Assembly: GCF_036669915.1 (NCBI RefSeq)
Contig: NC_089325.1
Span: forward strand, 10,933,231 to 10,997,230
DNA from: Pocillopora verrucosa
Lineage: Eukaryota; Cnidaria; Anthozoa; Scleractinia; Pocilloporidae
Reading direction: 5' to 3'
Length of the DNA stretch: 64,000 nucleotides
In this document: in pieces, positions 1,311 through 21,700 of the stretch
Layout: the number at the start of each line of letters is the position of its first letter
Numbering within the stretch: the stretch's first letter is position 1
Notes under the pieces: model-generated
The model's input: only the letters and a program-made list of their open reading frames with translations
Told to the model about the DNA's origin: nothing
The model's database searches: none
Translations under genes and position numbers: made by a program

Positions 1311-1439
1311 GTTGAAGTTACTTGATGAGCAACGGATTCATGTTGAAAAGAGCTTTGAATGTCCTTTTGTGCCAATGTGAAATAATTTATGGATTAAATG
1401 AGGAGTTTGGATCAACCATCGAGGTTTACTCTTAAGTTG

Positions 1440-1766
1440 CTAAGGCTAACGGTTCCTCACGTGATCGTGGAAAATATCTCTCCCCTTGTCTTGGACGTAT
1501 AGCGGTCCCGCCATCTGATTGGTTCATTCGCCATTTATATGCTCAGATCCCCTCTGAGTGGTTTGGTTCCGGTGAAGTATCGCACTTTGCTGATCAAAGG
1601 TTCTGATCACCGGTGTGTGTTGCTGATTAACACGAAACACACGAACTCACAATTACCATTTACGAATCTTCCCTCCCGCGGCGTCAGCTTAAGTGTGCGT
1701 TAATATCAACTGGGAAGACCCCTTCCATCGAAACAAAGAGAGGTTGCAAGAATATCGAGTTAAGTG
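1440..1766 (+). promoter_or_regulatory. Upstream region of the M-type first exon, unit 0
   Basis: Matches 12,633-12,845 plus 15,272-15,349 in the next unit, with an ATTGG (CCAAT) box at about 1,518-1,525 (CTGATTGGTTC). It ends directly at the ATG of the M0 exon. Conservation in both units and position before a preserved coding exon suggest promoter or 5' UTR sequence. Transcription start is not visible. Confidence 0.5.
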
Positions 1767-1905
1767 ATGAGTTTTCCAATAAGGGCTATCGTAAAACTCA
1801 GAAGAATCCTTTTGATAGGGTTGGTAATTGCTGGTGCATTCTATGCAGTGATGTTGATGCCAAAAATGCTGCGGCTATTAAGAAAACTGAACCAGGAGGA
1901 TATCG
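1767..1905 (+). CDS. M-type first exon: signal-anchor N-terminus, putative alternative exon 1 of sulfotransferase gene A
   Basis: A 139-nt open exon from ATG to a GT donor (GATATCG|gtaagg) encodes about 46 residues starting MSFPIRAIVKL, with a hydrophobic segment around residues 14-30 (ILLIGLVIAGAFYAVML), as expected of a type II Golgi anchor. It ends in phase 1, the same phase as the P-type first exons at 6,664 and 18,732, so joining to exon 2 at 8,012 would stay in frame. The next unit holds a copy (15,350-15,485) differing by a net 3-nt indel that keeps the frame, which points to selection on the protein. The motif AGAFY-x-V is shared with the P-type exons, so the two exon types look homologous. 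Splicing to exon 2 is inferred, not seen. An alternative is a separate small gene or a decaying exon. Confidence 0.55.
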
Positions 1906-2276
1906 GTAAGGAAATAATTTTTAGTAGAATTGCTTCTACCTTAATAGTACCGCTTGACACTGGAAAACACCTACAGCACCACGCGAGTTTATTGGTCAAG
2001 AGTGCAATAGAGGTTATAGAGTGCAATACGGAGAAGTTGCCATGAAAACACCGGGGAAGCGCCAAATTTGAACACCAAATTATAAAAAATGGCTGACAGC
2101 CGTTTTGCTTTGTCTTCAAGAACTTCACGCTTGATTTACCTGTCACAACATTACATTTTTGATTGGTTCAAATAAAACATGTGAGCATTTTGGAACCCAT
2201 TGAAGTGTTTTTTGTAGTACGTAAGGCGTGCAGAGTAGCGCGATGGAGTAATTTTGTCGAGAATATAATAAATAAA

Positions 2277-2364
2277 AAATCGTATGAACCTGCTCGTGCA
2301 TTTCGCGATTTATGGTCACTCGTGCCCATAAATCACGAAATGCACGAGCAGGTTCATACGATTT
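2277..2364. repeat. Long perfect-type hairpin (39-nt arms)
   Basis: Arms 2,277-2,315 and 2,326-2,364 are reverse complements with one mismatch, separated by a 10-nt loop. The corresponding part of the next unit (about 15,640-15,700) lacks it, so it arrived or was lost after duplication. It looks like a small foldback element. Confidence 0.8.
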
Positions 2365-2384
2365 CCTATACTTACTAAGTGCGC

Positions 2385-2510
2385 CAGGCGACAATTATAT
2401 TACAAAATGCGACAGGTATAACAAGGTCCGACAGCACTGTATTGTGCAATGCCTATTACAAAGTGCGATGAACGAAAAAGTAGACAAAAGCGAAGGGAAC
2501 GTTTGTTGAT
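2385..2510 (+). repeat. Degenerate short tandem repeat of TTACAAAGTGCGACA type
   Basis: Several diverged copies of a unit close to ATTACAAAGTGCGACAGGT follow one another at roughly 20-30 bp spacing. A longer, related cluster is at 15,700-15,840 in the next unit. No coding role is apparent. Confidence 0.55.
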
Positions 2511-2674
2511 CGCTAAGTGTGATTTTAACGACTTTTGTGTGAAGCTCAAAGCTAATTGTCTTTAAGATAAATACCAAATTAAAGGCAAAAGGACCGCTTT
2601 AACAACCATGATGGATGTCTTCAATTGCTATTTAGGGGAGCTCAAAATTTTATAACTGTCTCTTAGTGAGATGG

Positions 2675-2952
2675 TACCAACGGAGTTAGAACAATGCGGC
2701 TAATCTCAACTTTAATGAATAAATCGTTAATTTCCACTAAATTTGTAAATACAGCCGGACCGTCTCAAAAACTATTTCCCAAAAAAACTATTATTATTGT
2801 GAGGCTTAGTTTTTACCAACGGAGTTGGAACAATGTGGCTAATCTCAACCTTAATGAATAAATCCTTAATTTCCACTAAATTTGTAAATACAGCCGGACC
2901 GTCTCAAAAACTATTAACTAAAAAAACTATTATTATTGTGAGGCTTAGTTTT
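2675..2952 (+). repeat. Tandem duplication, 139-bp period, two copies
   Basis: The segment starting TACCAACGGAGTT at 2,675 is repeated from 2,814 with only a few substitutions; both copies end in a GAGGCTTAGTTTT run. The 63-aa ORF lying over it is not supported as a gene. Confidence 0.85.
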
Positions 2953-3657
2953 ATTCAGCTTAGTAAACATCACATATTGATGTATTTTCAGTTGCGAATT
3001 AAACTCTTGATAAGTAACAAGTGATATATATTCTTGTGATATAAATTGCAGTATTTTTCATAGATTTCCAGTCCTGATAAAAGTCATAAGAGCAAACGTG
3101 TAAAATAACGATATTTTTTTACGCGTGTTCGCGCCACTCTGTCAGGTTAATCAGTGAATTAATGACAAATCATTCAACATCCTCAATCTAAGGTTGTTTG
3201 TCGAAATTTTTCTCGAATTATGGCCGCTAACAATACTGAAAGTTTGTATAGCTTACAGACACTGACGTTCAAAATTTCCTAGAAGCGGAAAAAACCAAAA
3301 TACGAAAAGTTACTTGGCTTTGGTTAGAATATTTCTCGTGGCTGAGCTAAAATCAGCAACCGGAAGATTTGGCACCGGTCGACTTTGGCCGTGTATTTGA
3401 GCAAATTTCTTCTGAGGTACGGAAAAGTCTATAACTAAGAATTTGTGAATTATAAGTTACGCCCATTTTTTTTTTGTAATGATTCAACGCATTTTTTCAT
3501 CTTGAGCCTTGTTGCCTTCGCACTTTACGACTTTTTTTGGCGGATTGTGAATCCTTATTCGTTTCATGTCTTAATAAAGTCGGCTTTCCTTTTCTTTTCA
3601 GCAAAGGCCTATTGTGTACATAATAAACAAAATAATAGTGATTGGTTGCTTGTAGTT

Positions 3658-3760
3658 ATGAAATTTCTCTCCTCGTGTTTAACTCAATATCTCACTCATT
3701 TGTTGTGCTCACCTGTGAGATGTCGAGTTAAATACGAGAAGAGAAATCCCATATCGATGC
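3658..3760. repeat. Dispersed hairpin repeat (AAATTTCTCTCCTCGTGTTT type)
   Basis: About 35-nt imperfect inverted arms (3,660-3,696 and 3,713-3,749) enclose a short loop. A second copy lies at the equivalent place in unit 1 (16,481-16,600). The structure suits a non-autonomous DNA element older than the unit duplication. Confidence 0.7.
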
Positions 3761-4714
3761 GCGCCCGTGTATCATTCTCTGTTTCCTTAGACCAAAAAAA
3801 ATTGTGACAAATGAAGCGAATAGACACAACAAAACGGAAGAAACATAATGTGTACATCTAAGAAGGCAGAACTTATTCTTTGAGAGAGACCTGAGAAGCT
3901 TTCTGCCATTTCGCTGCCATTTTTCACAAATTTATCTGGTTTCTCCGACTGGGTAGTATTTTTAAGCAAAGACGTCGGTTACTACTTAAAGCCGATAAAT
4001 AACTTATTAATCCTCTCTTTTCACTCTCTTAAATTACTTCGGTTGACAGTGAAGAAATGTAAAATGGTTTCCGTGTTTTCATAGCCTGATGTAAACACGC
4101 GGGAGGTTGGGAGAACACGAGATAAGCGTAGGAAACCACGACGCGAAGCGGAGTGGTTTCCAGCTTATATTTGAATTCTCTCAGACAATTTGTTCGTAGT
4201 GAGAGTGTACTACAAATACGCTCTCGATGGGTCTTTCCGAGTCCGTTCAATGTGGACATTTGTACCGTTAACTGGACAGCAGAAACTAAGGGAATTCAAC
4301 GAGAAAAAGCCGCATTAAATCCCCTTGTGTCTAGTTGAAGTGTCTCCTTCGAATTTAGTTTTTATAGAGGAAATACCAGATTTAAGATTTAAAGGTGCAC
4401 ATGCGCTTTTTCATCTTACGCGCTCTCTAATTGACAGGTGTCAGATTGTGACAGATACTTGTAAAAATAATGTTTCAAAGTTCGTTTGGAAGCCTTTTAA
4501 ATCACCTTTATCCTTACGCAAATGAAAATTTTTCGGTGAAGCCTCTCTTTAATTTGCATTACCTCTATTTTAACTACCTATACCTTAAATTACTCGTTTA
4601 ATATTTGTTCAGTTTATGAAAGATCTTGCCGTAATTACAGCCCTAAATCATTCGGGTAATTTTGAAAAGAATTTTGTTGAGTTTAAAAACATATTTAAAA
4701 TGTTATTCACCAGC

Positions 4715-4795
4715 CAAGGTCGATCTGTAAAGGGAAAAACTTTGCCCTCTTTCAAGACCTCGGGCAAAGTTTTTCCCAATACGGACCTACCGGCT
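4715..4795. repeat. Hairpin/MITE-like element unique to unit 0
   Basis: A perfect 16-nt inverted repeat, GGGAAAAACTTTGCCC at 4,732-4,747 and its complement at 4,762-4,777, lies in the part of the spacer that unit 1 lacks. It probably belongs to a small foldback element; its outer limits are uncertain. Confidence 0.65.
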
Positions 4796-6058
4796 GGCGA
4801 ACAACATGTGTGTTTTAACGAATTGTGCCGTATTTTGACGAGCCCGTATGACGAGTCAAAATACAAACAACAATTTAAAATACTCAGCGATACTACACAG
4901 CAAAACGTCTAATAAGATATGTATTATCCAACTGCTTTTTTTCTGCTATATATTTCTGCCCATTTCTCATAAGCGGGGAAAAGCAAAGCGGATAAAGAAG
5001 CGTAGCGCGCGCAGCTGACTGGTTAAACAGGCATTTTTACAGTACAAAATAACAAAGTTACCAAATAAACGTACAATATTGCAAGTAATGTGTACCCTTT
5101 TCGTGCGATATTTGTTCTCTAGTAAGTGCAGTACACGTAGGTACACGACAGCGCTGTTGAGGAATGGCTTCCGTATCATGAGTCCGGAAATGACTGACTG
5201 GCACAAGAACCAAAATTCCTCCAACAGTAGCTTTCTTTTAAAAGGTAAATCAGTTCTGGTTGTTGATCGTGGATAAATGGTACGATAACGAAGTGTTCAC
5301 TTATCAAATAATCGCGGGACTGCAAGTGATCCTGGAATTGTAAGTGATCCCTAAGGCTGGGCCGCTACTTTTGCAACTTTTTGCATGGTCAGATCGCCAT
5401 CGTAATTCTTTTCTTAATTCCGGTAACTTTCGTGATATCTCTCGATTTTCCAGTCTTGTGGGTCTGCATTAGCTGGAACTTTCTACAGATAGATTCTTTG
5501 TAAAATGAATAACAGATGAGTATGAAAAGTCACGACAGCAGTGCGTTAGATACTAACCGCTGATTGACCGCAAAAAATGCAATGCCACAAAATGTTTGCG
5601 CAAGGAGGAAAAAGTTTTGTTTGCCGATCGTGGATAAATGTCATCATGATGAAGTGTAGAGTTCCACAAATGACCCGGAATCGCAAGTGATATGGATCGA
5701 TAGATAGGATATGGATCGATAGATAAGAATGGATCGCTACTGTCATAATTCCTTACATGGCCATCTCATCTTTTAAGTTGCGTCACTCGGTAAGCAAAGT
5801 GACCCCCACCACAATATTATCCAATATGATCCCATGCCATTCGCCAAACAGTTTACAACAAGAACCAATATCCAGGTATGATCTCTATATTAAATATGCC
5901 AAGGTGACGGTCGAATTAAATTTCTAAAATAATTGACATGTGGTTTGCTAATTTGTGCCGCTTTCTTCGGGTTGTGTTCACCATTCGCGCTCTCGAAAGC
6001 GACGGTAGCACTTGTGCAATTGTTGAAGAGACCGCGATGTTGCATAAGTAGTTGAAAA

Positions 6059-6663
6059 ATGAATATGTTTGTGAGCCCTATACCATGTACTTACATGGGA
6101 ATGGTCAGATACACTAAGTATTCTTCAGTGACTTAATACATTTGTATTGTTTGGGCGGTTTCAGTGCCAAATATCTTGCTATCCTTCGACAGACTTGCAC
6201 GTACTCATCACAAAGTCTCGAAAAGGTGCCTGGCCATTCTGTCAATTTGATTGTACTGAAAATTTACTGAGTCTTTAGAGCATTCAGAAATTTGATTTCC
6301 TGGTGAAATTTCTATTGATGCGTGTTTTATCTCGTTTTCCCTTCGAAACTGCTATGTGCCTTAACAACCGCCATGTTTTCTCCCGGCGATCACATGGAAC
6401 AAGTGCGGCTTCCTGACTGGTTTATATAATGATTGGGCTACCTGAAATGCCTCCAAAATACTGCTCTCTGATTGGGTAGGACCCACATAAGCCATTTCTT
6501 CCCCTGAAACGTGAGTGAGCCAGAGAGCACTTAAAGATATATCGAAGGCATGACCTTGATCAATACTAAGTGCCATTCCACCGATAGAGTTGTGCGTTGA
6601 TTGAGAAGGAACCTTTCTTATTAAATCAAAGACAGGTTGCAGAAGTACGTACATAATTCCAAA
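6059..6663 (+). promoter_or_regulatory. Promoter/5' block (P1) of sulfotransferase gene A
   Basis: Homologous blocks precede gene B and, more diverged, gene C (25,560-26,103), always ending at the ATG exon. Two inverted CCAAT boxes (ATTGG at about 6,432 and 6,469) lie 195-235 bp before the ATG and recur at similar spacing in genes B and C. Conservation across three paralogues whose other flanks have diverged supports a regulatory or 5' UTR role. No TATA box is clear. Confidence 0.55.
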
Positions 6664-9600
6664 ATGCGTTGTTCGTTAAGGAACTTCGCAAAACTTACAT
6701 TCGTCATTCTGATGGTGCATGTCCTTGCAGGGGCATTTTATTCAGTAATTTTTGAAACAAATCGAAGTGTTAACGGTAAGTTACCATAACATTTGTTTCT
6801 GTTTAACTCGCACCACACCCAGTGGTCTTGTCCACTGCCGACCTGACGAACCGACAATGCCTCCCAACGAAACGAAAAATGAATCAGTACTTTCGCCCAT
6901 TTTTTTGACTAAATCAAACTCAGTGCCTAAAGTGACAACCATCCATAGTAAAGAACTTTCTCGTTATTCAACGCTATCAAGATATTTATCTCGCTTTCAA
7001 TTCTCCGCTAATTTGTTTGATTGCACTTGTATTGTTTTGACACTATGTAGTAAGCCTGAAACACTCGACTTTCACAGACGGGCTTTAAAGCCATTTCAGG
7101 GACACTTGTAAAAAATGGCCCCGTATTCTATTAACTCTTTGCCCTGTTTTCTATTACCGATAGAGTGAAAGCTCTCTCTCCGATAAGCGAAAGCGTAGAG
7201 AAATTTATTCATATTTCAAACGCCTGGCAATCTTGTTTCTCGACCATACTTTTCGTGTGCTTGGAACTGCAATCGCTCTGAAAAACTGCTCGCTCAAGAT
7301 CCCAAATTTTTAAGGCTTGTGGGTGCGAGCAGATGAAAATGTGAACCATTTCTTAAAACACTTTTTCGACTGAGGTGCTTGCTTAGACTGCTGCACGACT
7401 GAATATTGGTTGCATTCTCAGCGCACATCGTAAATATATATTTTGACCAATTACGATTTTATGCTTCTGTCTTGGTTAGGGTTATTAGTTGATCTCGTTA
7501 AAACAGTGTTATTGTCCCTTTTAATATTTAGATGGCGAGTCAGTCATTTCATGTATATGTTAGAAAGTTAAACGTCTTCGTTAGCGTTTTTTGTTGTCAC
7601 AATATTAAAGCAAACGTTGAGTTGTCGTTGTTGATGTTGTTTTTGTTTGAACTGAAATTCCATCACTTTTTATTTTTTGAGCTGCGCGTTTGAAACTACC
7701 GAGACAGCAAATTAAAACTGTAATTTCCTTTTAACTGCATAGACAAAACTCCATCATCAACAAAATAACGCTTCTTAAATTAAATTTGAAATCTAGAGTA
7801 GACATGCAAGAGGAAGATACGGTTGAAGTACGACTTTGCTCTGACGTACGTCAAAACAACCCCTAGCTTAACGTTAACGCGACTGTTTAATAATTCGTTA
7901 TAATTTCGATCATTTATTTTTTTTTTTGAGGTGATAGTAGAACGGTTGCATATTGCAAACTCCCTTTATCAACACCTAGATTTCTAATAAATTTCAATTG
8001 AATTTTAACAGATTCCCAGAATATCAAACAGATGAAAAGAGAGGCACTGGTAAGTAGTTAATTGAAATTCAGCGAGTGGGGGTAAATTTTCTACTCGTCA
8101 AAATTCTTGCTATGAGGATGAATCTGGTCCCATTCTCGATCAAAACATGTCATTTTTACACCCGAAGCAGACCTGCTGGTCTATAAAATCCATATCTATT
8201 TTCAAACCTTTGGTTTTGGAATTCATTACGCTCTCCCGCAGAATATCATTACTTTGAAAAAAAAAAATTGTGATTTTTAAAGTTATCAATTGTACTTAAA
8301 ACAATATAATCTTAAAGGAGTGCTAACTTTCGGATTTATGTCTCTCAGTATTTTCACACAAATCGAATGCGACCAATTTTCAACTTTTCGGTTTCATTTG
8401 AGCTCATTTTCAATCCAAAGTAACTCTATAAACCTGTTTTACTGAAGTACAACAATTCAAAAACCCCTTGCCGAGAGAAAAGACTGTTCTGGAATAAAAT
8501 GTTTTTCCTTACTGAAATAAAACTATACTTAACCTCGCTGAAATCCTGCAATCATTAAAAAACATGTCCAAGACAAAAATAGACAAAGGAAAAAGTGAAC
8601 GAAACTTATCCTAATGGCTTAGGATTAGAGACAAGGGTCATTCCCCGAGAGAAGGGAAAGGCCATTTTCTGCACGACTTACCTTTTTCACACTGGGCTCA
8701 TGTCTTGAAGAGCAGTTTTGTCGAAAACATAATTAAAAATTTGTTCCAAACAGAGAGTCTTTCCTAGTAGTACACAGAACGCAAGTCACACATAAATCTA
8801 CGGTTACCTTGCTCAGATGGCCAACGACTGACTTTCCTTTTGCTGGTTGGGAAAGCCTCCAACCGCAATTTCGTTAAAGAAGGAGGTTTAAAATCCTTAG
8901 GGGAAACTAGGGTTTTTTTTTATTACTCGCCCTTCGTGTTCTTGAAACTGCAATCGTTCTGCAAAAACTGCCCGCTCAAGATCCCAAATTATAGAGACTT
9001 GCGGGTACGAGCAGATGAAAATGTCAACCATTTCTTACCACACTTACAACCAATTCTCTAGCTACGTGGAGTGGCAAATGGAACGATATATTCTCTCTTT
9101 GTTTTAGTTAGTGGTATTTAAATGTTAAACTGTAAAAATTATTTCTAAAGCTTAGTAACATTTTAACCAAAACTTACTATAGTGTCAGTTGAATATACCA
9201 AAAAAATTGGCCAGAAAGTTTGGATTTACATTACATGTAAGTAATAATGGTGCAGTGGCTGCATATCACGCGCGACTCCCGCAGCGTGGGTGCCGAATTT
9301 GAGAATTGTTCGTATTCACCTTAAAAAATAGTTCGAAAGAATAATTTTGGTTCCTTCCTTCTCAGTCTCTCTCTATGGAATCAAAAATATGACCATGTTT
9401 ATACGTTCTCTTGGTGTCTTTAGGTATCATACAGTTATCCCTGACACATAATTTTGTTCCCGAAGCAAGTCGCACAAATGTGATGATTGCAGTGACAAAT
9501 TGGGACACAAAGACTTGTTTTGAAAGCAGTACTCACGAATCGATTCGTGACGAAGCCCTGGTTCGGCGATTTAGCGCCTTAAATGTTCCAGCCTTGTTAA

Positions 9601-10470
9601 GAATGTTTATCAACTTAAATCATTTTTAATTTCGCTTTTTTTCAGATCAGACTTTTAGAGGAAAGATATCGGCCTTGGAATTCTTCTGCTTGTACCAAGC
9701 AAGGTAGAAGAAAACCTATTCAATATATCGTCAAACATCACCTTATCGTGTCCGAGCGTTACAAAACACTCTTCTGTTTCGTTCCTAAAGTAGCATGTAG
9801 CAACTGGAAACGAATTTTTCACGTTTTAGATGGACATTTCAACTCGTCGGAAGATATCTCCCACGAAACTTCGCATGATTCAGGAAAGTTACGCTTTTTG
9901 AGACATTATTCAAACGCTACAGTAGTAAATCACATGTTAAAAACATACAAAAAGATTGCATTTGTTCGCGAACCTATGGAGCGATTTCTGTCAGCCTACC
10001 GGAGTAAATTTGCACCCGTTGATCCCCCTAGAAGGGGATTTTACTACAGCACCGGCCTAAACATCATCAAAAGGATGCGGAAGAACTCTACAGGGTTAAC
10101 TCCACATTATCCCACATTTAAGGAATTCGCAAATTTCGCGATTACTACGCCTGTTAGCTCTCATGATGAACACTGGGATCGTCAGCATAATTTATGCGCT
10201 CCGTGTGATATAAATTATGACTTCGTTGGCTTTTATGATAATATCAAAGCAGATGCTGACCTCGCTCTTATGTTGATGGGAGCTGATGAAGAGGTTACAT
10301 TTCCAAATATCGAAGCTGCACCTGAAGGACAAGGATCACAAACGAAGATGAAGACTTTCTATTCAGGAATATCACAAGAAGAATTTACACGACTGCAGAA
10401 TATCTACGCAAAAGACTATGACATTTTTGGATTCAAAAAGCCCAGTTATCAAGAAATAGTGAATCCCTGA
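6664..10470 (+). CDS. Carbohydrate sulfotransferase, HNK-1 family (gene A), 3 exons, 324 aa
   Basis: Exons are 6,664-6,775, 8,012-8,049 and 9,646-10,470; all introns are GT-AG and the frame closes at 975 nt. Exon 1 encodes a short cytosolic tail (MRCSLRNFAKL) and a signal anchor ending in AGAFYSVIF, so a type II Golgi membrane protein is expected. Exon 3 has the two PAPS-binding signatures of the Sulfotransfer_2/CHST8-14 group: VPKVACSNWKR (about residues 96-106, 5'-phosphosulfate loop) and FVREPMERFLSAYRSKF (156-172, 3'-phosphate loop), then DEHW and the C-x-x-C pair near 234-237. N-glycosylation sequons occur at about N116, N140 and N197. The family moves sulfate from PAPS to a sugar hydroxyl on glycoproteins or glycosaminoglycans; the acceptor cannot be read from the sequence. 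Length is close to human CHST10/11. The M0 exon at 1,767 may serve as an alternative exon 1. Which CHST is the ortholog is undecided. Confidence 0.9.
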
Positions 10471-10526
10471 ATTTCTTCAGCAAGAAGGAAAAGGGGAGGC
10501 AAACCACAGCATGAAAAAGGATTGCT

Positions 10527-10571
10527 GTTTAAAATGGCGTACAGCTGTCACAGCTGTACGCCATTTTAAAC
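10527..10571. repeat. 45-bp perfect palindrome just 3' of gene A
   Basis: Arms of 22 nt (10,527-10,548 and 10,550-10,571) are exact reverse complements around a single C. Gene B retains only a variant of the left arm at the same distance past its stop codon, and beyond this point the A and B flanks no longer match. It therefore sits at or near a duplication breakpoint. Confidence 0.85.
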
Positions 10572-10649
10572 AATGTTTGTTAACATTGCCAGACACTAAA
10601 ATTTTAACCAACACAAACTTGATAGGAATTTGATGAAACCGGTAAGCTC

Positions 10650-10866
10650 ACTCACCTTTGAGACAAAAAATCACGTCGCAGATAGAAGTAACTAATTTTA
10701 ACATCTCATTTCTAATTGCGATTTCAGAAAATTAGAGCAGTTGTCTCCAATTTGATTCTTCGTTGGTTTAAAAAAACTCGCCACTCTCTCAACCAATCAG
10801 ATGCAAAACTGAAACCAAAGAGTCTTCGTCAATGACGTTTTCCCGCGGCTCCTTATAATAATAATT

Positions 10867-10897
<31 letters not shown>

Positions 10898-11570
10898 TAA
10901 TAATAATAATTACTTTATCTAACGAGGGTTACACAAAGCAGTAAATATACTAAAGAACCAGTGACCCTCCTTGTGATATGGTCTTTAGCATAGTAGTTTC
11001 GTTTTTCTTTGGTCTTTTTCATAAGTTTTGTGTGCAAATTATACCCTTCAAATTTGAGAAATAAAAAAAAATCCATCGAAGGGGAAAAAGATATAGCTAA
11101 AAGCGTGCAGGGAGCCCGTTACTTGAGGATGCAAATTATAACCCTGAAAGCAACGATTCGAGGAATGTTTTGAGTCGATGTCGCTAAAAACCGCGTGATT
11201 GTTTCACAAATTATATATCAAATTGTTCCATACGCTCGAGACTTTCTACCTATCAAGTTTTTTTCAAGTGTGGCTTTAGAAAGGTTGTTTCCAGCTACCT
11301 CAAATTGTACCGCGAACAGATGAAAGGATTCGCCTGATTAGCGCCAGTACGGGCTTAAGTGCGGTAAGCTTGGCCCCCATATCTTTTAAATATGCTTGGT
11401 GACCTATTTTTTAAATTGTATTTTACGAAACAAACGTTGGTAGGAAACATTTAAGGAGAGTTTAACAAAATTGGTGGTTAACTTTTTTTTTCTTAGCAAT
11501 CACCATAAGGCGGCTGGTGTTTTTTTTTGGCGACATTTGAGTTCATTTTGAAGTAGTCGAATGGAATCAA
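10650..11570 (+). repeat. Duplicated 3'-flank block (B1) of the tandem unit
   Basis: Second copy of the 523-1,310 block. It includes an (AAT)n microsatellite at about 10,856-10,910 that the other copy lacks. No reading frame is conserved between the two copies. Confidence 0.65.
10856..10910 (+). repeat. (AAT)n microsatellite
   Basis: About 17 AAT triplets with a few interruptions, present in unit 1 only. Confidence 0.9.
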
Positions 11571-12632
11571 GAAAGAAATGTTTATTATTTTTATTAAAAT
11601 CACAACTAGCAGCTAGTAATTGAATTACTTGCACAATGTACGTAATTTATAATAATTTGAAAAGCATATATTACGAAAGATATAAATCGTATAATAATAA
11701 ATTCTAAACATAAACAATTAAAAAAATTAATAACAATAACCCTACTTAGATTTACATTTGCTCTTTTGCTGTATAATGCATTATGAAGGAATTTCGAACC
11801 TTTTGATTTTGATACCGGGCATAGCAAACATTCGCTTATTCCTTAGGTTGTACTGAGAGGCGTCATTGCGCGCAGGTAGCAGGTCAGCTAGTTTATGCTT
11901 GCCATTACTCTCTTTGACCTGATTGAGTAGACTTACGCATAACTCTTCTCGCCTACAAAGAGTGTTTTCAGATTTGCATCTTCTGGCGGTTTTCTATACG
12001 ATGCCTCTGGATATGAATGGAATGATCCCTAAAACTCGCCTCTGAACCCTCTCTATTTAATCAGACAAGTAGACTGGTTAGCTAGAATGGAAAGCTTGAG
12101 GGGCATTTTCTAAGACAGAACGAATACATGCGCAGTAGAAGTGAATTGTAGATGTGCAGTCAATGCCAGCGCGCTTAAGTTGCTTGGCAAATAGATTCGC
12201 TGAGACGCTTTCACAGTAATATTATCTACGTGGTAATGCAACTTTAGGTCACCCTTTATTGCAACGCACAGTACTTTTGCTGATTTAATGGTTTCAAAGG
12301 AATTGCCATTGGCCTCAATTACTGTGACCTCGTTTGGTTTCCTTCGAAAGTTTATGCGGAGTTCCTTGCACTTCCACGAGTTCAGTTTGAATTTATGATC
12401 ATTTTTTGATCATGTCAGCTTGAATTAATGATCAATTTTTTGATCATGTCCTTCAATTTGAAGGACAAGATCCACTGTGTCTTGTATCTTTGTTGCACTG
12501 GACTTGGGAACAATTTCTGAAACCGTGGTATCGTGGGCAAATTTCCACATACCAGAAAGGGGGTTGCTCGAGATAGCGAGGTCATTAATCATGACCAAAA
12601 AGAGCCAAGGGCCGATGCGGGTACTAACTACA
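11571..12632 (-). mobile_element. Decayed non-LTR retrotransposon fragment (reverse transcriptase C-terminal half)
   Basis: Read on the minus strand from about 12,620 downward, the translation gives IGPWLFLVMINDL, then WKFAHDTTVSE, then SWKCKELRINFRRKP, and after a frameshift LSD-x-IERVQRRVLGIIP, HKLADLLPAR and YNLRNKR. These are the palm and thumb region plus C-terminal tail of LINE-type reverse transcriptases. The [YF]-x-D-D active site (12,530-12,544) reads F-A-H-D, so one catalytic aspartate is lost, and stops and frameshifts interrupt the frame. The 5' part of the element is missing. Its edges coincide with the point where units 0 and 1 stop matching (1,302 and 1,447 in unit 0). Confidence 0.85.
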
Positions 12633-12845
12633 GGGCTAACGGTTCCTCATGTGATCGTGAAAAATATCTCTCCCTTTACCTTGGACGTATAGCGTTCCCG
12701 CCTTCTGATTGGTTCATTCGACATTTATACGGCCAAATCCTCTCCAAATGGTTTGGGTCTGGTGAAGCCGTTCTGATCACCTGTGCGTGTTGTTGATTAA
12801 CACCAAACACACGAACTCACGAATACCGTTTACGAATCTTCACTC
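12633..12845 (+). promoter_or_regulatory. Upstream region of the M-type exon, unit 1 (displaced copy)
   Basis: Matches 1,447-1,665 of unit 0, including the CCAAT box (CTGATTGGTTC). In unit 1 the match breaks off at about 12,845 and resumes at 15,272, so 2.4 kb now separates this block from the M1 exon. Confidence 0.5.
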
Positions 12846-13486
12846 CCCCAACTTAACCCTTTGCCACCTGTATGTAACGTGTGCCTATCCAAAAGTTAAA
12901 AATTTTGGAGAAACGAGAAAAGCAAACACAATGCGCAGTTAATTTTTATAAATCTTCTTTTCCTAAACACAAGCTCCGGTGAACGAAGACCATTTAAATG
13001 AAAAAAGCCATAGATGCACACTAACTTTTTACTCTAAAGAGCATAACTTTCAAAAGAACGAAAATATCACAGAAAGACAGAAAAAAAAACCTAATTTATC
13101 TGACCTCACACAGATATTTTGTGGTCTATTGGTCCGCAATGCGTGCTTGTGTGGGATTTCAGTCAAAAAACCGTTGATGCGGTATGGATTAGCTTTACAG
13201 TGAATTAAATACATTTGGTCATGTTATAATGATAAATGTCGAGTAAAGATTCCGTAGATTCCCAAGGTGCAGACGAGAAAAGCTTATGGGAGAAGCATGT
13301 TTTGACTTCTAGTTTTGAGGAAATTAGGGGTGCTTAAATAATCATATGCAGAATAATCCGGTTGGGATGACTGGTGAATAATGGTAACAGTTTTTCTAAA
13401 ATCAGCAAACCAGCCGAACGAGATGTTTTCGGCTAATGAGAGACTGGAAACTGGAAAATTCGGCAAATGGTAAGGAAATTTCCGCT

Positions 13487-13686
13487 ATTCCGTTCGGAAC
13501 TGAAAAAGAGGACTACCTCAGGAGGAAGCCTACAATTTCTGAATGAATTTTCCGGAAAAGGTGCTTGCGATTTAGCAAAAAATCCGGAGATTCAGGTTGA
13601 AAGTCAAATGGAACGGACACTTTTGTGGAAAATCCGTTCGGAAATTGTAGAATACCTCTCACGGTAGTCCTTTTTTTCCGTTCGGA
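13487..13686. mobile_element. Foldback/MITE element with long imperfect inverted arms
   Basis: The left arm (13,487 to about 13,575, with CCGTTCGGAACTG, AGGACTACCT and CTACAATTTC) is matched in inverse order by the right arm (about 13,600-13,686). Each arm is roughly 85 nt. Overlapping ORFs on opposite strands are a by-product of this symmetry. Confidence 0.8.
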
Positions 13687-14351
13687 TACATCTAAACAAA
13701 AATTGACAGTTTTACTCTGTGAAAGCTCACAATAAAATGTAAGTTGAAGGGTTGTAAAACTTACTGAGTAAAATATTCTCAAACTTAACTCGTTTTGTGA
13801 GAGAGTAACAAAAACTTATATTTATTTCAAAGTGTTTACGCCTACTTCACTCAACTTTTCTTTTTTTTTTTATTATTATTATTATAGTGGTTAACAATTG
13901 CCTACATAGCCTTGCTGCGAAATGCAACATTGGTGACAACTATTGCAAAATTAGGTGAAAACTAACGTTAACCTGATCATGGTATTATTGTGGCAAAACA
14001 AAATGATATCGGCAAAATGGTATTCGCAATTATCACAAAATTTACGGTAACAGTTAGCTTTGTTGAGTAAAACTGTTGGCTACAGTTGAAGTTTTTTAAC
14101 GATGATGGGAGGTCATTTAGGTAAAGGTAACATTGGTAATTACATTGGTGAGAGTAACCGAAAAAAAACACTTAACCTCGTTCCTAGGGTCCTCTCTCTT
14201 CCTTGTGGAACCAGAGACCACTTGACGGACTCTTTGCTCTCGCACACAAATAGATAAATAAATAAATGAATAAATAAATAAATATCGCAGGCCCTGACAA
14301 AGTGTGGGGAAATCTCACATAATGAAATACATCGGTGCTACGCTTACTGTT

Positions 14352-14456
14352 GTCTCCTTCGCAGCCGTTGTTTGGTCTCGTTACACAACGCCCTTTATTT
14401 CCCGTTTGAGACAGAGCGCGTGCGTGACGAGACCAAATAACGATTGCGAAGGAGAC
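14352..14456. repeat. Inverted repeat, 33-nt arms
   Basis: Arms 14,352-14,384 and 14,424-14,456 (GTCTCCTTCGCA ... TGGTCTCGT type) are complementary with about four mismatches around a 39-nt loop. Probably a short non-autonomous DNA element. Confidence 0.8.
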
Positions 14457-15271
14457 TACGCTTACTACCGTTCCTCTAACAGAGAGAAAATCAAAATTGT
14501 TCGTCTATAGTTAGTTACCTCAAAAATATAATTCCGTATAATTTTACAACTAAAAGCAAACTGAAACTCTGTTGTACCTTTAATAGACCATAACGAAAGA
14601 TATACTGCGATCTCGAATAAGTGAAGATACATTGACCAAGAGAAAAGGATAAGGTTTTAAAGAGGGCTCCTGATTTGTTGTGCCCATCTGGATTTTGCCC
14701 TCAGTGTATAAAATACGAGATAAAAATGCAAGTTGTTTTTTTTTTTACAAGGAACACCCAATTGGTTTAAGTCCAAGGTAGCTAAAAGCAAATTTTATTC
14801 GTAGAAAAAGTCAAAACTCAGGAGAACTGCGTGGAAAATTCAGTATCAGTAGCATTTAGTTCCATGTGAATGTTTTTCAGTGGGGTTGGACAATGCGGTT
14901 AGAATACGTGATGAAATGCAGGTTCTCTAGAAGGAAATGACACGTGATGAAACAATACCCAAACGCTGTGATTGGTGCAAGTTATCCAAATGCTCTGATA
15001 TATTGGTGCAAGATACATACCCGAACGCGGAAATCTGATTGGTGCGAGCAACATACCACTCCATAAGCTAAAAAATAACATGATAACATTGAGTTACTTT
15101 TTTATAGAAAAAATAACAAAAAATCGTTAAATTTTTCGCACGTGTGCAAACAAATATGTAGATCGAATTTCAGAGAGGTATGCGAATTTTCAATGTGTGA
15201 AGAGATATCATGTTACATGGAATTTGCCATATTTGCATATTCAATTTTTTCGCGGTTTGGGTATCAATGTG

Positions 15272-15349
15272 TTAAGTGTGCGTTAATATCAACTGTGAAG
15301 ACCCCTACCATCGAAACAAAGAGAGGTTGCAAGGATATCAAATCACGCG
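15272..15349 (+). promoter_or_regulatory. 5' leader of the M1 exon
   Basis: The 78 bases before the M1 ATG match 1,690-1,766 of unit 0, including ATCGAAACAAAGAGAGGTTG. Probably 5' UTR retained with the exon. Confidence 0.45.
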
Positions 15350-15485
15350 ATGAGTTTTCCAGTTAGGGCTATCGTAAAACTCAAGAGAATCCTCTTTATG
15401 GGTTTGGTAATTGCTGGTGCATTCTATGCAGTGATGTTGATGCCGAAAATGCTAAAAGTCGGAAAATTGAACCAGGAAGATATCG
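15350..15485 (+). CDS. M-type first exon, unit 1: putative alternative exon 1 of sulfotransferase gene B
   Basis: Starts MSFPVRAIVKLKRI and runs through the same hydrophobic anchor as the unit 0 copy to a donor at GATATCG|gtaag, ending in phase 1 (136 nt). Against unit 0 the stem differs (MLKVGKLNQ for MLRLLRKLNQ) by a net loss of one codon, leaving the frame intact. It would splice in frame to exon 2 at 20,199. The promoter-like block normally adjacent is 2.4 kb upstream, so activity could differ from the unit 0 exon. Confidence 0.5.
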
Positions 15486-16480
15486 GTAAGAAAGTAGTTT
15501 TTAAAAGAGTTGCTTTTTCCTTAATAGTACCGCCGGCTTGACACTGGAAAACACCCATAGCATTGCGGTATTTTATTGACAATTGCAATCTAACGTTCTC
15601 CATCAAAGTCATTCATAAAACTGAAACAACGTAACACAACAACCGTCAGGGAATTTATGCAATTTTGCTACTCATTCGCTTCATAAATTGGCTTACCAAG
15701 TGTGATGGTCTGTTATTACAAAGTGCGACAGCTTTTTTACTACAAAGTAGGACAAGTGTTATTTCAAAGTGCGCCAGGTATTAAAAAGTGTGACAGTATT
15801 TTCTTGTGCGACCTATATTACAAAGCGCGATGGACGAAAGCTAAGGGCGGGAAACTGCGGAGTTTTTCACGGATTTCCAGCCATACTAACTAAAAGCCAA
15901 ACGTGTAAAATAGCAAACGTGTAAAATTACGATAGTTTCAGTTTTACGTGTGTTCACGCCACACCGTTAGGTTGATGAACAAATGGCAAAGTGTTCAACA
16001 TCCTCAATAATCCAAGAATTTTTGTCGAAATTTTTCTCGAGTTATGACTACTAACAATACTGAAAATTTTGTATCGCCTACAGACACTGACGTTCAAAGT
16101 TCCCTAGAAGCGGAAAATACTAAAATACGATAAGAACAACCAAAAATTACTTGGCTTTTCTCGCGGCTGGGCTGAAATCAGCAGCCGGAAGATTTGGCAC
16201 CGGTCGATTTTGGCCGTGTATTTGAGCAGATTTCCTCTGAGATATGGGAAAAGTTGATGACTAAGAATTTCGTAAATTAAAAGATACGCCCATCTTTTGT
16301 TTTTGTAATAATTCAACGCATTTTTTCATCTTGAGCCTTGTCGCCTTCGCACTTTACAACGTTTTTTCACGGATTGTGAATCCTTGTTCTTTTCAGGTCT
16401 TAATTAAGTCGACTTTTCTTGTTAGTAAAGGCCCATTGTGTTTACATAGTAAACAAAATAATACTTGGTAGCTTGTAGTT

Positions 16481-16600
16481 ATGATATTTCTCTTCTCGTG
16501 TCCAACTCGATAACTCACTCGTTTGCGGTGCTCATCTGTGAGATATCGAGTGAAATACGAGTAGAGAAATTCCATATTTATGGGCGCCCGTGTATTATTC
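16481..16600. repeat. Dispersed hairpin repeat, second copy
   Basis: Same family and position within the unit as 3,658-3,760; arms contain ATTTCTCTTCTCGTG and its complement. Confidence 0.7.
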
Positions 16601-17558
16601 TGTATTTCTTTGAATTAAAAAAAAAAGCTTGTGACAAATGGAGTGAATAAACACAACAAAACGGAAGAAACATAATTTTTACATCCAAGGAGGCAGAACT
16701 TATTCTTTAAGAGAGACCTGAGAAGCTTCACAAATTTTCAAACAGTATCTATATGCATGACTGCACTCACGCCGTTTGTCAGCCATAAGCTATTTCTTTC
16801 ATCATCTTTGCTTAAATACATAGGGCTGGTCAAAATACGGCACAACTCGTGAAAATACTCAGCGATACTACACACTAAAACGTCTACTAAGATATTTATT
16901 ACCCTAGTGCTTTTTTGTTCAGCCAAGTCTTTCTGTTCATTTCTCATAACGCGGGAAAAGCAAAGCAGATAGAGCAGCGTAGTGCGCGCAGCCGACTAGT
17001 TAAACAGGTATTTTTTTCAGTACAAAATAACCAACGGTCCAGATAACCGTACAATATCGCAGGATATTCGTACTCTATTCGCGCGTTATTCGTACTCTAC
17101 GAAGTGCAGTTGGATGATAATACGTAGGTACACAACTGCGCTTGATTTAAAGAATCAAGCGCGCTGCTGACGAATGGCTTCCGTAAATGATCGTGAGTTA
17201 GGAAATGACTGACTGGCATAAGAACCAAACTTCCTCCAGCAGTAGCCTTCTTAAGTTAAATCAGTTCTGGTTGTGTTGATTGTGGATAAATGTGACCATA
17301 ATGAAGTGTACACTTCGCAAATAATCGCGGGACTGCAAGTCAGTCCTGGAATCGTAAGCGATCCCCGAGTTAGACCATTACTTTCGTAACTTTTTTCATG
17401 GCCAGATCGCCCATCGTAATTTTCTTCTTAATTCCGGCAACTTTCGTGATTTCTCTCGATTTTCCAGTCTTGTGGGTCAGCATCAGCTGGAAATTTCCAC
17501 GGCTGAAAGATTCTTTGTTAAATGAACAACAAATGAGTATAAAGAGCCGGTTTCGTGG

Positions 17559-17707
17559 GCCGGTGTCCCAGCGGTCCAAATCCGGTCCAAATCCGCTAGC
17601 GGATATGGACTCCTCGGTCCAAATCCGCTAGGGGGGGGGGGGGGGAGGGTCTAAATCTGTGAAGGGGATCCATATCCGCGGGGGTCCAAATCCGCTGTGA
17701 CACCGGC
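17559..17707. mobile_element. Small element with GCCGGTGTC terminal inverted repeats
   Basis: Termini GCCGGTGTCCCAGCGG (17,559-17,574) and the near-complement CCGCTGTGACACCGGC (17,692-17,707) enclose several direct and inverted copies of GGTCCAAATCCGCT and a poly-G run at about 17,630-17,645. Unit 0 has no counterpart near 5,480-5,520, so this is a unit 1 insertion. Confidence 0.75.
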
Positions 17708-18124
17708 ATTAGCCGAAACGTCCCACGTTTGAAGATTCTCTATTAACTGAAGGAAAAACGCATGAGCATGAAAAGTCACGAAAGAAGCGCTTTAGATAAT
17801 TGTCACTGATTGTACACAAACATACCATGCCACAAAATGTACGCACAATCATATACATTTATTTTTTATAATTCGTTAATTTTCATAATACTTTAAGTGA
17901 CCCAACTTCAATATTATCCTATGTAATCCCATGCCATTCGCCAAACATTTTACAAGACAAGGTGGCAAGGTGTATGTCGAGTTAAGATTTTAAAAAAATT
18001 TTTCATGTGGCTCCTTAATTTTTGCGGCTTTCTTCGCGTTGTGTTCACCATTCGCGCTCTCGAAAGCGACCGTAGCACTTGTGCAATTGTTGAAGAGACC
18101 GCGATGTTGCATAAGTAATTGAAA

Positions 18125-18731
18125 AATGAATGTGTTTGTGAGCACTATACCATGTACTTACATGGAAATGGTCAAATACACTAAGTATTCTTCAGTGACT
18201 TAATATATTTGTATTGTTTGGGCGGTTTCAGTGCCAAATATTTCGCTATCTTTCAACAGACTTTACACGTACTCCTCAGAAGGTCTCGAAAGGTGCCCGG
18301 TCATTCTGTAAATTTGACTATATTGAAAATTTACTCAGTGTTTAGAACATTCAGAATTTTATTTCCTGGTGAAATTTCTCTTGATGCGTTTTTGTCACGT
18401 ATTCCCCTCGAAACTGCAATGTGCCCTAACAACCGCCATGTTTCCTCCCGGCGATCACATGAGCGAACAAGAGCGGCTTCCTGATTGGTTATATCATGAT
18501 TGAGCTACCTTAAAGGCTTTCGACATACTGCTCTCTGATAGGGTAGGGCCCACATAAGCCATTTCCTCCACTGAAACGTGAGTGAGATAGAGAGCACTTA
18601 TAGATATATCGAAGGCATGACCCTTAATCAATACCAAGTGTGATTCCGCCGATAGAGTTGTGCGTAGATTGCGAAGGAATCTTTCTTATTGAATCAAAAA
18701 AAGGTTGCAGAAGTACGTACGTAATTCCAAA
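18125..18731 (+). promoter_or_regulatory. Promoter/5' block (P2) of sulfotransferase gene B
   Basis: Third copy of the P block, matching 1-522 and 6,059-6,663, with CTGATTGGTTATATCA (CCAAT box) about 245 bp before the ATG. Confidence 0.55.
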
Positions 18732-21700
18732 ATGCGTTGTTCGTTTTGGAACGTGGCAAAAGTTACATTCGTCATTCTGACGGTGCATGTCCTTGCAGGG
18801 GCATTTTATTCAGTAATTTATGAAACAAATCGAAGTACTAACGGTAAGTAATCATGACATTTGTTTGTGTTCAACTCGTAACTTGACGTTTCGAGCGTTA
18901 GCCCCTTCGCCATCGCTCTGACGAAGGGCAAACGCTCGAAACGTCAACGTCAACGTCAACTCGGTTGATACTACTAAAATTACCACATAACAAATATTGG
19001 GAGAATGAATCCATTTATATGACTTGAATCTGTATGCGAAACTGTAAAAGACGACACAAGGTTAAGCGATGTTTTTCTGAAGTGGCACGCCGACCTGACG
19101 AACCGACAATGCCTCCCAACGAAACCAAAAAATGAATTAATACTTTCGCCAGTTTTTCAGACTGAGTCAAACTCAGTGCCTAAGGTGACAACCATCCATA
19201 ATAAACAACTTTCTCGTTATTCAACGCTACCAAAATATTGGTCTCGCTTTTAACTCCTCGCTAATTTGACTGATTGTGTTGTGACGTTATGCATTAAACC
19301 TGAAACACTCGACTTTCACAGACGGGCTTTAGAGCCATTTCAGGAACACTTGTAAAAAAAAAGCTATCTCCAATAAGCGAAAGCGTAGAGAAATTTATTC
19401 ATATTTCAAACGCTTGCCAATCTTGTTGCTCGACCATACTTTTCGTGTTCTTGGAACTGCAATCGCTCTGCAAAAACTGCCCGCTGAAGATCCCAGATTT
19501 TAAAGGCTTGCGGGTACGAGTAGATGAAAATATCAACCATTTCTTAAAACACTTTTTCGACTGAAATGTTTGCTCGGACAGCGCTGCATAACTGAATATT
19601 GGTTGTATTCGCTGCGCACGTTGTAAAAATATATTTTGAACAATTACGAATTTGTGCTTCTGTCTGAGTTAGGGTTACTAGGTTATCTTATTAAAACAGT
19701 GTTAGTGTCCCTTTTAATATTTATGTGGCGAATCAGTCGCTAAATATATATATCTTAGAAAGTGAAACGTCCTTGTTAGCGTTTTTTTTTTGTTGTCACA
19801 ATATTAAACGTAGAATTGTCGTTGTTAATGTTGTTCTCATTTGAACTGAAATTCCATCACCTTGTATTTCCTGAGCTGCACGTTTGAAACTTCTGAGACA
19901 AAAATTTACAACTTTAATTCCCCTTTAACTGCATAAGCGAAACTCCATCATCAACAAAATAACGCGTTCTTTATTAAATTTGAAATCTAGAACAGACATG
20001 CAAGAGGAAGATACGGTTGAAGTACGACTTTGCTGTGACGGACGTCAAATCAACCCCTTAACGTTGAACACTACCGCTTAATAATTCGTTATAATTTCGA
20101 TCATCTGTATTTTTTTGAGATAGAAGAACGGTTGCATCTTGTAAACTTCCTTTATCAACATTCAGATTTCTAATAAATTTTAATTGAATTTTTAACAGAT
20201 TCCCAGAATATTAAACAGATGAAGAGAGAGGCACTGGTAAGTAATCAGTTGAAAATTCAGCGAGTGACTGTAATTCTTACCAGGAGGGTGTGTCTGATCC
20301 CATTCTCGACCAAAACATGTTATTTTCACACCCGCAGCAGACCTGCAGGTCTGTAAAATGCATTTCCATTTTGACACCTTACTTCTGTAGGTTGCAATTT
20401 GGGTTTGGAATTCATTACGTTCTCCCGTAGAATATCATTACTTTGAAAAAATTAAATAGTGAATTTGAAGTTATCAATTGTACTCAAAACAATATAATCC
20501 TAAAATAGTGCTAACTTTCGGATTTATGTCTCTCAGTATTTTCACACAAATCGAATGCGGCTAATTTTCAACTATTGGGTTTAATTTGCGCTCATTTTCA
20601 ATCCAGAGTGCCTCTATAAACCTGTTTTACTGTAGTACAACAACTCAAAAGCCCTTTGCTGAGAAAAAAGACTTTTCTGGAAAAAAATGCTTCTCCTCAC
20701 TGAAATAAAACTGTACTTAACCTCACTGAAATCCTGCAATCATTAGAACACATGCCCAAGATAAAAATAGACAAAGGAAAAAGTGAACGAAACGTATCAT
20801 TAACAGATTAATGGCTTAGGATTAGAGACAAAGGTCATTCCCCGAGAGAAGAGAAAGGCCATTTTCCGCACGACTTACCTTGGGCTCATGTCTTGAAGAG
20901 TAGTTTTGTCGAAAACATAATTAAAAATTTATTCCACACAGAGAGTCTATCCCAGTAGTACACAGAACGAAAGTCACACATACATCTACGGTCACCTTGC
21001 TCAGATGACCAACGACTGACTTTCCTTTTGCTGGTTGATAAAGCATGCAATCAACCACAATTTCGTTAATGAGGTTTAACATCCTTAGGGGAAATGAGGG
21101 TTCTATTATTACACGCCCTTAACTGAATTTTCAAGGTTTTTCTTTTGTACGTTTTTCTTTGTATGTCTTCTTTTTTCAAAGAAGATCTATTTTCAACGAA
21201 CTCTCCAGCTACGGGGAGTGGCAAATGGAACAATATATTCTCTCTTTGTTTTAGTTAGTGGTATTTTAATGTTAAATTGTAAAAACCATTTTTAAAGCTT
21301 ATTACCATTTTAACCAAAACCTACAATAGTGTCAGGTGAATATGCCCAAAAAAAAATTGGCCAGAATGTTTGGATTTACATTACGTGTAAGTAATAATGA
21401 TTCAGCAACTGTATATCACGCGTTACTCACGCATCGTGGGAGCCGAATTTGAGAATTGTTTGTATTCACCTTGACAAACAGTTCGAAAGAATAATTTTGG
21501 TTCCTTCCTTCTCTCTCTATGGTTTTCATTTGGAGTCAAAAACGTGAACATGTTTATACGTTCTCTTGGTGTCCCTAGGAATCATACAGTTATCCCAGAC
21601 ACATAATTTTGTCCCTGAAACAGGTCGCACAAATGCAATAATCGTAGCAACAAAATAGGACACAAAGACTTGTTTTGTAAGCAGTAAACACGAATCGATT

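What the first reader, a model, noticed from the sequence alone, without database searches (positions are those of the whole stretch)
1767..20236. Each sulfotransferase unit has two homologous, phase-compatible first exons encoding different Golgi anchors
Seen: M-type exons (1,767-1,905; 15,350-15,485) and P-type exons (6,664-6,775; 18,732-18,843) all start with ATG, encode a basic tail plus a hydrophobic anchor with the shared AGAFY-x-V core, and end in phase 1 at a gtaag donor. The common exon 2 (8,012; 20,199) begins so that either donor gives an in-frame join. The two M exons differ by a net single-codon indel, keeping the frame. Known: the anchor and stem of type II glyco-sulfotransferases influence Golgi sub-localisation and partner choice. 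Inferred: alternative promoters produce two enzyme forms with the same catalytic domain in different sub-compartments or cell types. I know of no described case in this family built by first-exon duplication within a tandem array.
Basis: partly seen in the sequence, partly recalled or inferred. Interest (0 to 1): 0.75.

Follow-up and report, generated by a model that had tools for sequence, protein, structure and literature searches.

The report
Coral sulfotransferase with swappable membrane anchors
A reef coral carries a row of four closely similar genes for a sugar-sulfating enzyme, preceded by eight alternative starting exons of two related types, so the same enzyme could be made with different membrane anchors; the layout is clear in the DNA, but no RNA evidence was available here to show that both types are used.

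Summary
The window is Pocillopora verrucosa, contig C14. All four stated exons exist, start with ATG, encode tail plus anchor, end in phase 1 at a GTAAG donor and join in frame to exon 2. M and P are homologous, 5'UTR included. "Each unit has two" is wrong: the array has four catalytic units and eight intact first exons. Unit 0, upstream of the window, has M only; unit 1 three M plus one P; unit 2 one M plus one P; unit 3 (26,104-33,080) P only. Genome-wide searches found no other M or P exon except a broken M relic 75 kb upstream. Two M copies lie in modules that stop short of the P exon, so this is a first-exon array, not broken whole genes. M exons show modest constraint. No RNA evidence was available; the one annotated protein seen is the P form ("isoform X1"), and no database representative carries an M start. 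Most likely: alternative promoters choosing between anchors; a new variant of a known kind (UGT1/GCNT2-style first-exon clusters, B4GALNT2-style N-terminal swapping).

The parts
1767..1905 (+). Mc: M-type first exon of unit 1, third of three (Ma and Mb lie upstream of the window at C14:10925011-10925149 and 10930299-10930437); ATG, tail, anchor, phase-1 donor CG|GTAAGG
6664..6775 (+). P1: P-type first exon of unit 1, donor CG|GTAAGT
   Evidence: P1+E2+E3 translates letter for letter to the NCBI-named P. verrucosa protein P0001
8012..8049 (+). Exon 2 (stem, 38 nt, phase 1 to phase 0) of unit 1
9646..10470 (+). Exon 3 (catalytic, Sulfotransfer_2, with stop codon) of unit 1
15350..15485 (+). M2: M-type first exon of unit 2; one codon shorter; about 78 bp of 5' flank shared with other M exons before an insertion
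18732..18843 (+). P2: P-type first exon of unit 2
20199..20236 (+). Exon 2 of unit 2
21800..22624 (+). Exon 3 (catalytic) of unit 2
26104..26239 (+).
31669..31706 (+). Exon 2 of unit 3
32256..33080 (+). Exon 3 (catalytic) of unit 3
1..522 (+). P-type upstream region without a P exon (end of the Mb module, which begins upstream of the window); homologous to about 6061-6591; joined at about 523 to the M upstream region
524..1766 (+). M-type upstream region and 5'UTR; part of it (about 773-1243) is a dispersed repeat
5909..6663 (+). P-type upstream region and 5'UTR; bases 5909-6591 gave 4 genome matches, all in this array

Best explanation
This is a tandem array of four genes for a CHST11/14-like (Sulfotransfer_2) type II membrane sulfotransferase in Pocillopora verrucosa. 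Each gene has a common stem exon and a single catalytic exon, preceded by one to four alternative first exons of two homologous kinds. P is probably the older kind; M arose from a first-exon duplication and then multiplied within the array. Each first exon brings its own 5'UTR, and probably its own promoter, and supplies the cytoplasmic tail, the membrane anchor and the first stem residues. Whichever promoter fires is spliced in phase 1 to exon 2, so the same catalytic domain is made with an M or a P anchor. Shown: exon structure, phase, in-frame joins, M/P homology, restriction to this array in the genome searches, the module layout. Inferred: that M donors are spliced to exon 2 in vivo (about 0.75), separate promoters, Golgi residence, and any difference in location, partner or cell type.
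For: All 8 of 8 first exons give ORFs of 324-333 aa with their own unit's exons 2 and 3. Unit 0 has an intact catalytic ORF but no P exon by nhmmer or tblastn; its only anchor-exon candidate in about 14 kb is M0, and only with the donor rule relaxed. Unit 3 has only P. So each kind appears to suffice alone. The Ma and Mb modules repeat, in blocks, M-upstream + M + intron + P-upstream and break about 183 and 72 bp before the P ATG position, with no convincing exon 2 or 3 relic between the M exons: what was duplicated is the first exon. M changes over the five genomic copies: 16 synonymous, 19 nonsynonymous, 0 stops; neutral P for that many synonymous 0.002-0.017 at ts weights 1-3, 0.019-0.031 at weights 3-5, which fit the observed 23 ts: 12 tv better. 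Pairwise dN/dS 0.18-0.50 in 10 of 10 pairs. No frame-breaking indel in the five M coding parts; flank rates predict about 2.4 for four of them (pairwise values summed on a star tree by me; chance of none about 0.09). The M read-through ORF found 39 public ORFs (source label 'ena'): 37 of 39 have Gly at the codon spanning the donor, and exact exon matches to M0, Ma, Mb and Mc occur on other, shorter contigs. Exon 2 is 38 nt, so skipping it breaks the frame; 13 of 14 AGs before P are out of frame for M. The name 'isoform X1' on the P1 protein implies at least one further isoform of that gene; which one is not known.
Against: No RNA evidence. No cluster representative carries an M start: 35 candidates, none at E <= 10. 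The Mc form would be 92.6% identical to P0001 and could be hidden in its 90% cluster; the M0 form (83% to P0001, 87% to P0002) could not, and is absent. This is weakened because no listed protein clearly comes from unit 0 with any start; the P3 form is also not a representative, but it could hide behind P0002 or P0003 (94-97%), so it is no clean control. The annotated isoform X1 is the P form, shorter than an M form would be. M0 has a non-consensus donor (GTAGGG), Mb has Arg inside its anchor, M2's upstream region is cut by insertions. One ORF cluster (P0124, 13 members), one of the two exact Mc matches, has Asp at the donor codon, so the GT is lost; one (P0150) has a scrambled tail. Nucleotide identity of the M exon barely exceeds that of its flanks. 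Unit 1's trio alone does not reject neutrality (P 0.08-0.16, up to 0.20).
Confidence: 0.7

Rival explanations
1. The M exons are duplicated but unused or decaying first exons; P is the only working start in units 1-3, and unit 0 is dying or uses an unrecognised start.
For: Only the P form is seen in the database; M lies 4.7-16 kb from exon 2, P 1.2-5.4 kb; M0 donor GTAGGG, Arg in the Mb anchor, M2 upstream cut by insertions; a truncated frameshifted M relic at about C14:10830928 shows that M exons do decay; the P0124 ORF lacks the donor GT.
Against: 5 of 5 M exons of the array keep ATG, frame and a GT donor; synonymous excess across the five; unit 0's catalytic exon is intact and no other anchor exon was found for it; exact M0, Ma, Mb and Mc exons recur in public ORFs.
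Confidence: 0.2
2. Ma, Mb, Mc and M2 are the front ends of former complete genes whose stem and catalytic exons were deleted; what looks like choice is leftover from whole-gene duplication.
For: The array did grow by duplication, and a stray M relic exists.
Against: Between Ma, Mb and Mc the DNA aligns in blocks with the M-to-P-upstream interval of unit 1 (with some stretches replaced or missing), and no exon 3 match lies there; the only exon 2 match there is a weak one (E 1.9, window 901-939).
Confidence: 0.06
3. Assembly artefact: haplotypes or repeats laid out as tandem copies.
For: Tandem repeats are hard to assemble; only one assembly was examined.
Against: M copies differ by 4-15% in coding sequence; exact M0, Ma, Mb and Mc exons are found in ORFs of other contigs.
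Confidence: 0.04

Closest known systems
Variable-first-exon clusters UGT1, GCNT2, UGT2A, protocadherin (PMC1885805; passages seen)
   Same: Tandem array of similar first exons in the same reading frame with shared downstream exons; birth-and-death duplication (UGT1, GCNT2). GCNT2 variable exons each carry a transmembrane segment near the N terminus.
   Different: The UGT1 variable exon is large and carries the aglycone-recognition domain (passage); that the GCNT2 exon carries most of the catalytic domain is recalled. Here the first exon holds only tail, anchor and a few stem residues, and the catalytic domain is common. The paper calls the UGT1, GCNT2 and UGT2A organisation vertebrate-specific; this is a coral, and the whole cluster is also repeated as units.
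B4GALNT2 alternative first exons 1L/1S (PMC9290495, passages seen; PMC9959560, start of abstract in the listing)
   Same: Golgi enzyme; alternative first exons change the N-terminal region while the catalytic domain is common; the long form also goes to post-Golgi vesicles.
   Different: By the listed abstract both forms share the same transmembrane and luminal domains, so the tail changes; here the anchor changes too, and the first exons are homologous tandem duplicates.
ST3GAL5 (GM3 synthase) N-terminal isoforms (recalled; not read)
   Same: Alternative 5' exons or starts give different cytoplasmic tails.
   Different: Recalled only; as far as I recall not a tandem first-exon array.
Drosophila pipe (recalled; searches returned no paper)
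   Same: Sulfotransferase locus with arrayed alternative exons.
   Different: As recalled, the reverse design: common N-terminal exons and alternative catalytic exons.
Vertebrate CHST8/9/14 and CHST11 (PF03567)
   Same: Same Pfam family; invariant motif blocks with CHST14-, CHST8- and CHST9-named proteins. NCBI names the P1 protein CHST11-like.
   Different: No first-exon array known to me in this family; one search found one paper, on steroid sulfation by its abstract, none.

Membership tests
Sulfotransfer_2 (PF03567) carbohydrate sulfotransferases | Pfam domain above cut-off | tested here: met
   M-form of unit 1: 175.1 bits, cut-off 22, profile 1-252 of 252; catalytic exons of all four units over the cut-off
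Sulfotransfer_2 (PF03567) carbohydrate sulfotransferases | PAPS-binding blocks (5'-PSB and 3'-PB; names recalled) intact | tested here: met
   VPK..CSNWKR and FVREPMER..SA invariant among P0001 and six relatives; tested on unit 1 only, the other units read by eye
Sulfotransfer_2 (PF03567) carbohydrate sulfotransferases | Type II topology, Golgi residence | tested here: inconclusive
   Short tail with net positive charge and one 18-residue hydrophobic stretch in 8 of 8 first exons; location not testable
Sulfotransfer_2 (PF03567) carbohydrate sulfotransferases | Sulfotransferase activity and acceptor sugar | not testable with these tools
   needs an enzyme assay; no PDB chain at E <= 0.001 by sequence
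Variable-first-exon gene cluster (UGT1/GCNT2 type) | Tandem array of similar first exons with the same phase upstream of common exons | tested here: met
   Unit 1: Ma, Mb, Mc, P1; unit 2: M2, P2. Units 0 and 3 have one first exon each and do not meet it on their own
Variable-first-exon gene cluster (UGT1/GCNT2 type) | A distinct promoter before each first exon | tested here: inconclusive
   Separate upstream regions and 5'UTRs per type; no start-site data; M2's upstream region is interrupted
Variable-first-exon gene cluster (UGT1/GCNT2 type) | Each variable exon is spliced to the constant exons | not testable with these tools
   Only P1-E2-E3 matches a named protein; no RNA reads held
Alternative-first-exon Golgi enzyme isoforms (B4GALNT2 type) | Isoforms differ at the N terminus and in location | not testable with these tools
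   Predicted N termini differ; isoforms and location unknown

The most novel reading that the evidence does not exclude
An invertebrate variable-first-exon cluster in which promoter choice among up to four first exons swaps only the membrane anchor and tail of a Golgi sulfotransferase, all M and P exons being used, in different cells or Golgi compartments, and selected to multiply because anchor choice changes which glycans are sulfated.
Probability: 0.3. Interest if true: 0.7.

Novelty: new variant of a known kind. Interest (0 to 1): 0.5.

Why it matters
How tail and anchor sequences sort Golgi enzymes is a long-standing question. Here nature has made a comparison series: nearly the same catalytic domain, two homologous anchors of different sequence, and sister genes that kept only one or the other. 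If both are expressed, anchor-swap experiments are ready-made. It also adds a first-exon array outside vertebrates, built by duplications whose breakpoints can be read.

Tried and rejected
Tried without result: M-bearing proteins in the cluster database by region (35 candidates, none at E <= 10); relatives of P0001 in viral contigs (none); Rfam at gathering threshold over window 1-34,000 (none); PDB by sequence (none). Paper searches, by listing: CHST with alternative first exon (1 paper, on steroid sulfation), CHST11 with alternative promoter, sulfotransferase with multiple or alternative first exons or promoters (10 papers, none reporting such a case as far as title and abstract start show), coral sulfotransferase expansion (5 papers, none on a coral array by title and abstract start), Pocillopora with carbohydrate sulfotransferase (1 paper), pipe. 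PMC10236652 has no occurrence of 'sulfotransferase' in its main text. Not done: junction counting, start-site mapping, structure prediction.

Considered and rejected: broken whole genes (no exon 3 match and only one weak exon 2 match between the M exons); assembly artefact (copies too diverged, copy-specific exons in ORFs of other contigs). M-to-P splicing: of 14 AGs in the 60 bp before the three P start codons, 1 (6,630, P1) would join in frame and read through the P start; 13 are out of frame, 10 of them with a stop within the exon. I did not score splice strength. The constraint result counts each derived state once and assumes independence; gene conversion between copies was not modelled. 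P exons show no such constraint: three copies 11 synonymous to 31 nonsynonymous (neutral P 0.48-0.73); P1/P2 0 to 9 (0.5 to 8.5 by the Nei-Gojobori method), chance of none 0.05-0.09.

Full report
WHAT AND WHERE. The genome search places the window at C14:10,933,231-10,997,230 of a 353-Mb genome. The protein P0001, named by NCBI 'carbohydrate sulfotransferase 11-like isoform X1 [Pocillopora verrucosa]', lies on a contig of 22,355,786 bases, the length of C14, and is letter for letter the translation of P1 + exon 2 + exon 3 of unit 1. Negative window positions below lie upstream of the window (C14 position minus 10,933,230).

THE OBSERVATION. Exon 2 is 38 nt in all four units and runs from phase 1 to phase 0, so skipping it breaks the frame. 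But 'each unit has two' fails. PF03567 catalytic exons of the array lie at C14:10,921,260 (unit 0), 10,942,966 (unit 1), 10,955,120 (unit 2) and 10,965,576 (unit 3), among 24 matches in the genome, some of them fragments. DNA search with the M exon and its 5'UTR gives 6 places, all on C14: five full copies and one truncated relic 75 kb upstream of M0. The P exon gives 2 places by DNA and 3 by protein; M gives 5 by protein. All eight make full-length ORFs with their own unit's exons 2 and 3. nhmmer finds no P exon in unit 0 and no M exon in unit 3.

MORE THAN CHANCE. A scan for ATG, hydrophobic stretch and phase-1 GTRAG donor in 51.7 kb upstream of the four exon 2s returned 7 candidates: Ma, Mb, Mc, P1, M2, P2, P3. 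M0 fails the strict donor (GTAGGG) and is the only candidate of unit 0 when the donor is relaxed. Background: 1 strict hit in 132 kb on the plus strand, 0 on the minus strand, 1 in 59 kb of the array's minus strand; with the relaxed donor 4 and 0 in the 132 kb. The scan's rules were set after the exons were known. M and P are homologous in DNA, including about 60 bp of 5'UTR.

HOW IT GREW. The Ma module (-9,363 to -3,683) aligns in blocks to unit 1 from M-upstream (664) through the M exon and intron to P-upstream (6,480), then meets the next M-upstream; the Mb module, which lacks a stretch matching about 4,895-5,909, ends at the match to 6,591. Mc's own intron has stretches not shared with the others (about 2,000-2,370 and 4,050-4,440). 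The breaks lie about 183 and 72 bp before the P ATG. Between these M exons no exon 3 match and only one weak exon 2 match (E 1.9) were found. So an M-bearing module was duplicated at the front of unit 1 without a P exon. The P exons resemble the N terminus of an Oculina relative (P0007; equalled by 3 of 3000 shuffles for P3, 54 for P1, 116 for P2), the M exons do not (678, 1358 and 2625 of 3000 for M0, Mc, M2), which suggests that P is the older type; this rests on one outgroup protein. In the tree of catalytic exons unit 3 falls with P0002 and P0003 and apart from units 0-2, with support of 84/85 and 90/83, short of the tool's starred level.

CONSTRAINT. Pairwise M dN/dS is 0.18-0.50 over 10 pairs. 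Over five copies there are 16 synonymous and 19 nonsynonymous changes and no stop; neutral P for so many synonymous changes is 0.002-0.017 at ts weights 1-3 and 0.019-0.031 at weights 3-5. The Ma/Mb/Mc trio alone is not significant (0.08-0.20). No frame-breaking indel lies in the coding part of the five M exons, against 0.87-1.35 expected per pair from the flanks of Ma, Mb, Mc, M2. Nucleotide identity over the M exon is close to that of the flanks. Catalytic exons have dN/dS 0.28-0.45 over 6 pairs. P exons are not distinguishable from neutral.

OTHER SOURCES. The M read-through ORF as query found 39 of 40 candidates at E <= 1, all labelled 'ena'; organism not stated. 31 of 39 carry the M start; 37 of 39 have Gly at the codon over the donor (26 followed by Lys, 11 by Arg, the latter as in M0), one has Asp (P0124; GT lost) and one Ser (P0139). 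Exact exon matches: M0 3, Ma 1, Mb 1, Mc 2, of which one is P0124; M2 has none, but P0149 shares its missing codon. The exon part is somewhat more conserved than the read-through part (0.860 against 0.773 mean pairwise identity in 32 of 40 rows, the query included). The hits were chosen by similarity to an M exon, so their shared core is no independent evidence.

WHAT SPEAKS AGAINST USE OF M. No cluster representative has an M start. The Mc form could hide in P0001's cluster (92.6% identical); the M0 form could not (83% to P0001, 87% to P0002) and is absent from the best 120 of 156 hits. But no listed protein clearly comes from unit 0 with any start, so the absence may reflect missing annotation. 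The P3 form is no clean control, since it could sit behind P0002 or P0003 (94-97%). M0's donor is off consensus, Mb has an Arg in the anchor, and M2 keeps only about 78 bp of shared upstream DNA before an insertion that holds a dispersed repeat.

READING. Most likely alternative promoters choose between anchors (0.7 overall). The array resembles the UGT1/GCNT2 clusters in layout (PMC1885805, passages) and B4GALNT2 in effect (PMC9290495, passages), but here only tail, anchor and the start of the stem vary and the first exons are tandem duplicates. A study of Clytia and coral larvae mentions one carbohydrate sulfotransferase-like protein among glycan enzymes of cells that share markers with mucous cells (PMC12225738, one passage); whether it comes from this array is unknown. 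Golgi location and different functions are inference.

Noticed in passing
window 2277-2364: Inverted repeat in the intron after the Mc exon; exact arms of 29 nt at 2277-2305 and 2336-2364.
   Followed up: no
window 2675-2952: Tandem duplication of 139 nt, 95% identical, in the same intron.
   Followed up: no
window 773-1243: Part of the M upstream region is a dispersed repeat: 35 of 43 listed matches lie outside the array and its relic, at 71-78% identity; 40 of 654 candidates were scored.
   Followed up: partly
window 12857-15271: Insertion ending 78 bp before the M2 start codon; holds a dispersed repeat with matches on at least 11 contigs (40 of 689 candidates scored).
   Followed up: partly
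window 6664-6775 and 18732-18843: P1 and P2 differ by 9 nonsynonymous and no synonymous changes, although P is the annotated form; chance of none 0.05-0.09.
   Followed up: partly
window 34677-35225 (-): Open frame with a partial PH domain match (PF00169, 26.5 bits).
   Followed up: no
window 56643-57302 and 59379-60182 (+): Open frames matching DUF5524 (PF17662; 28.8 bits, below the cut-off, and 64.8 bits).
   Followed up: no
L015, C14:10830851-10831010: Truncated, frameshifted M exon relic about 75 kb upstream of M0.
   Followed up: partly
P0124 and P0150 (public ORFs): P0124 has an Mc-identical exon with the donor GT lost; P0150 reads about 11 tail residues in what looks like another frame, then returns.
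   Followed up: partly
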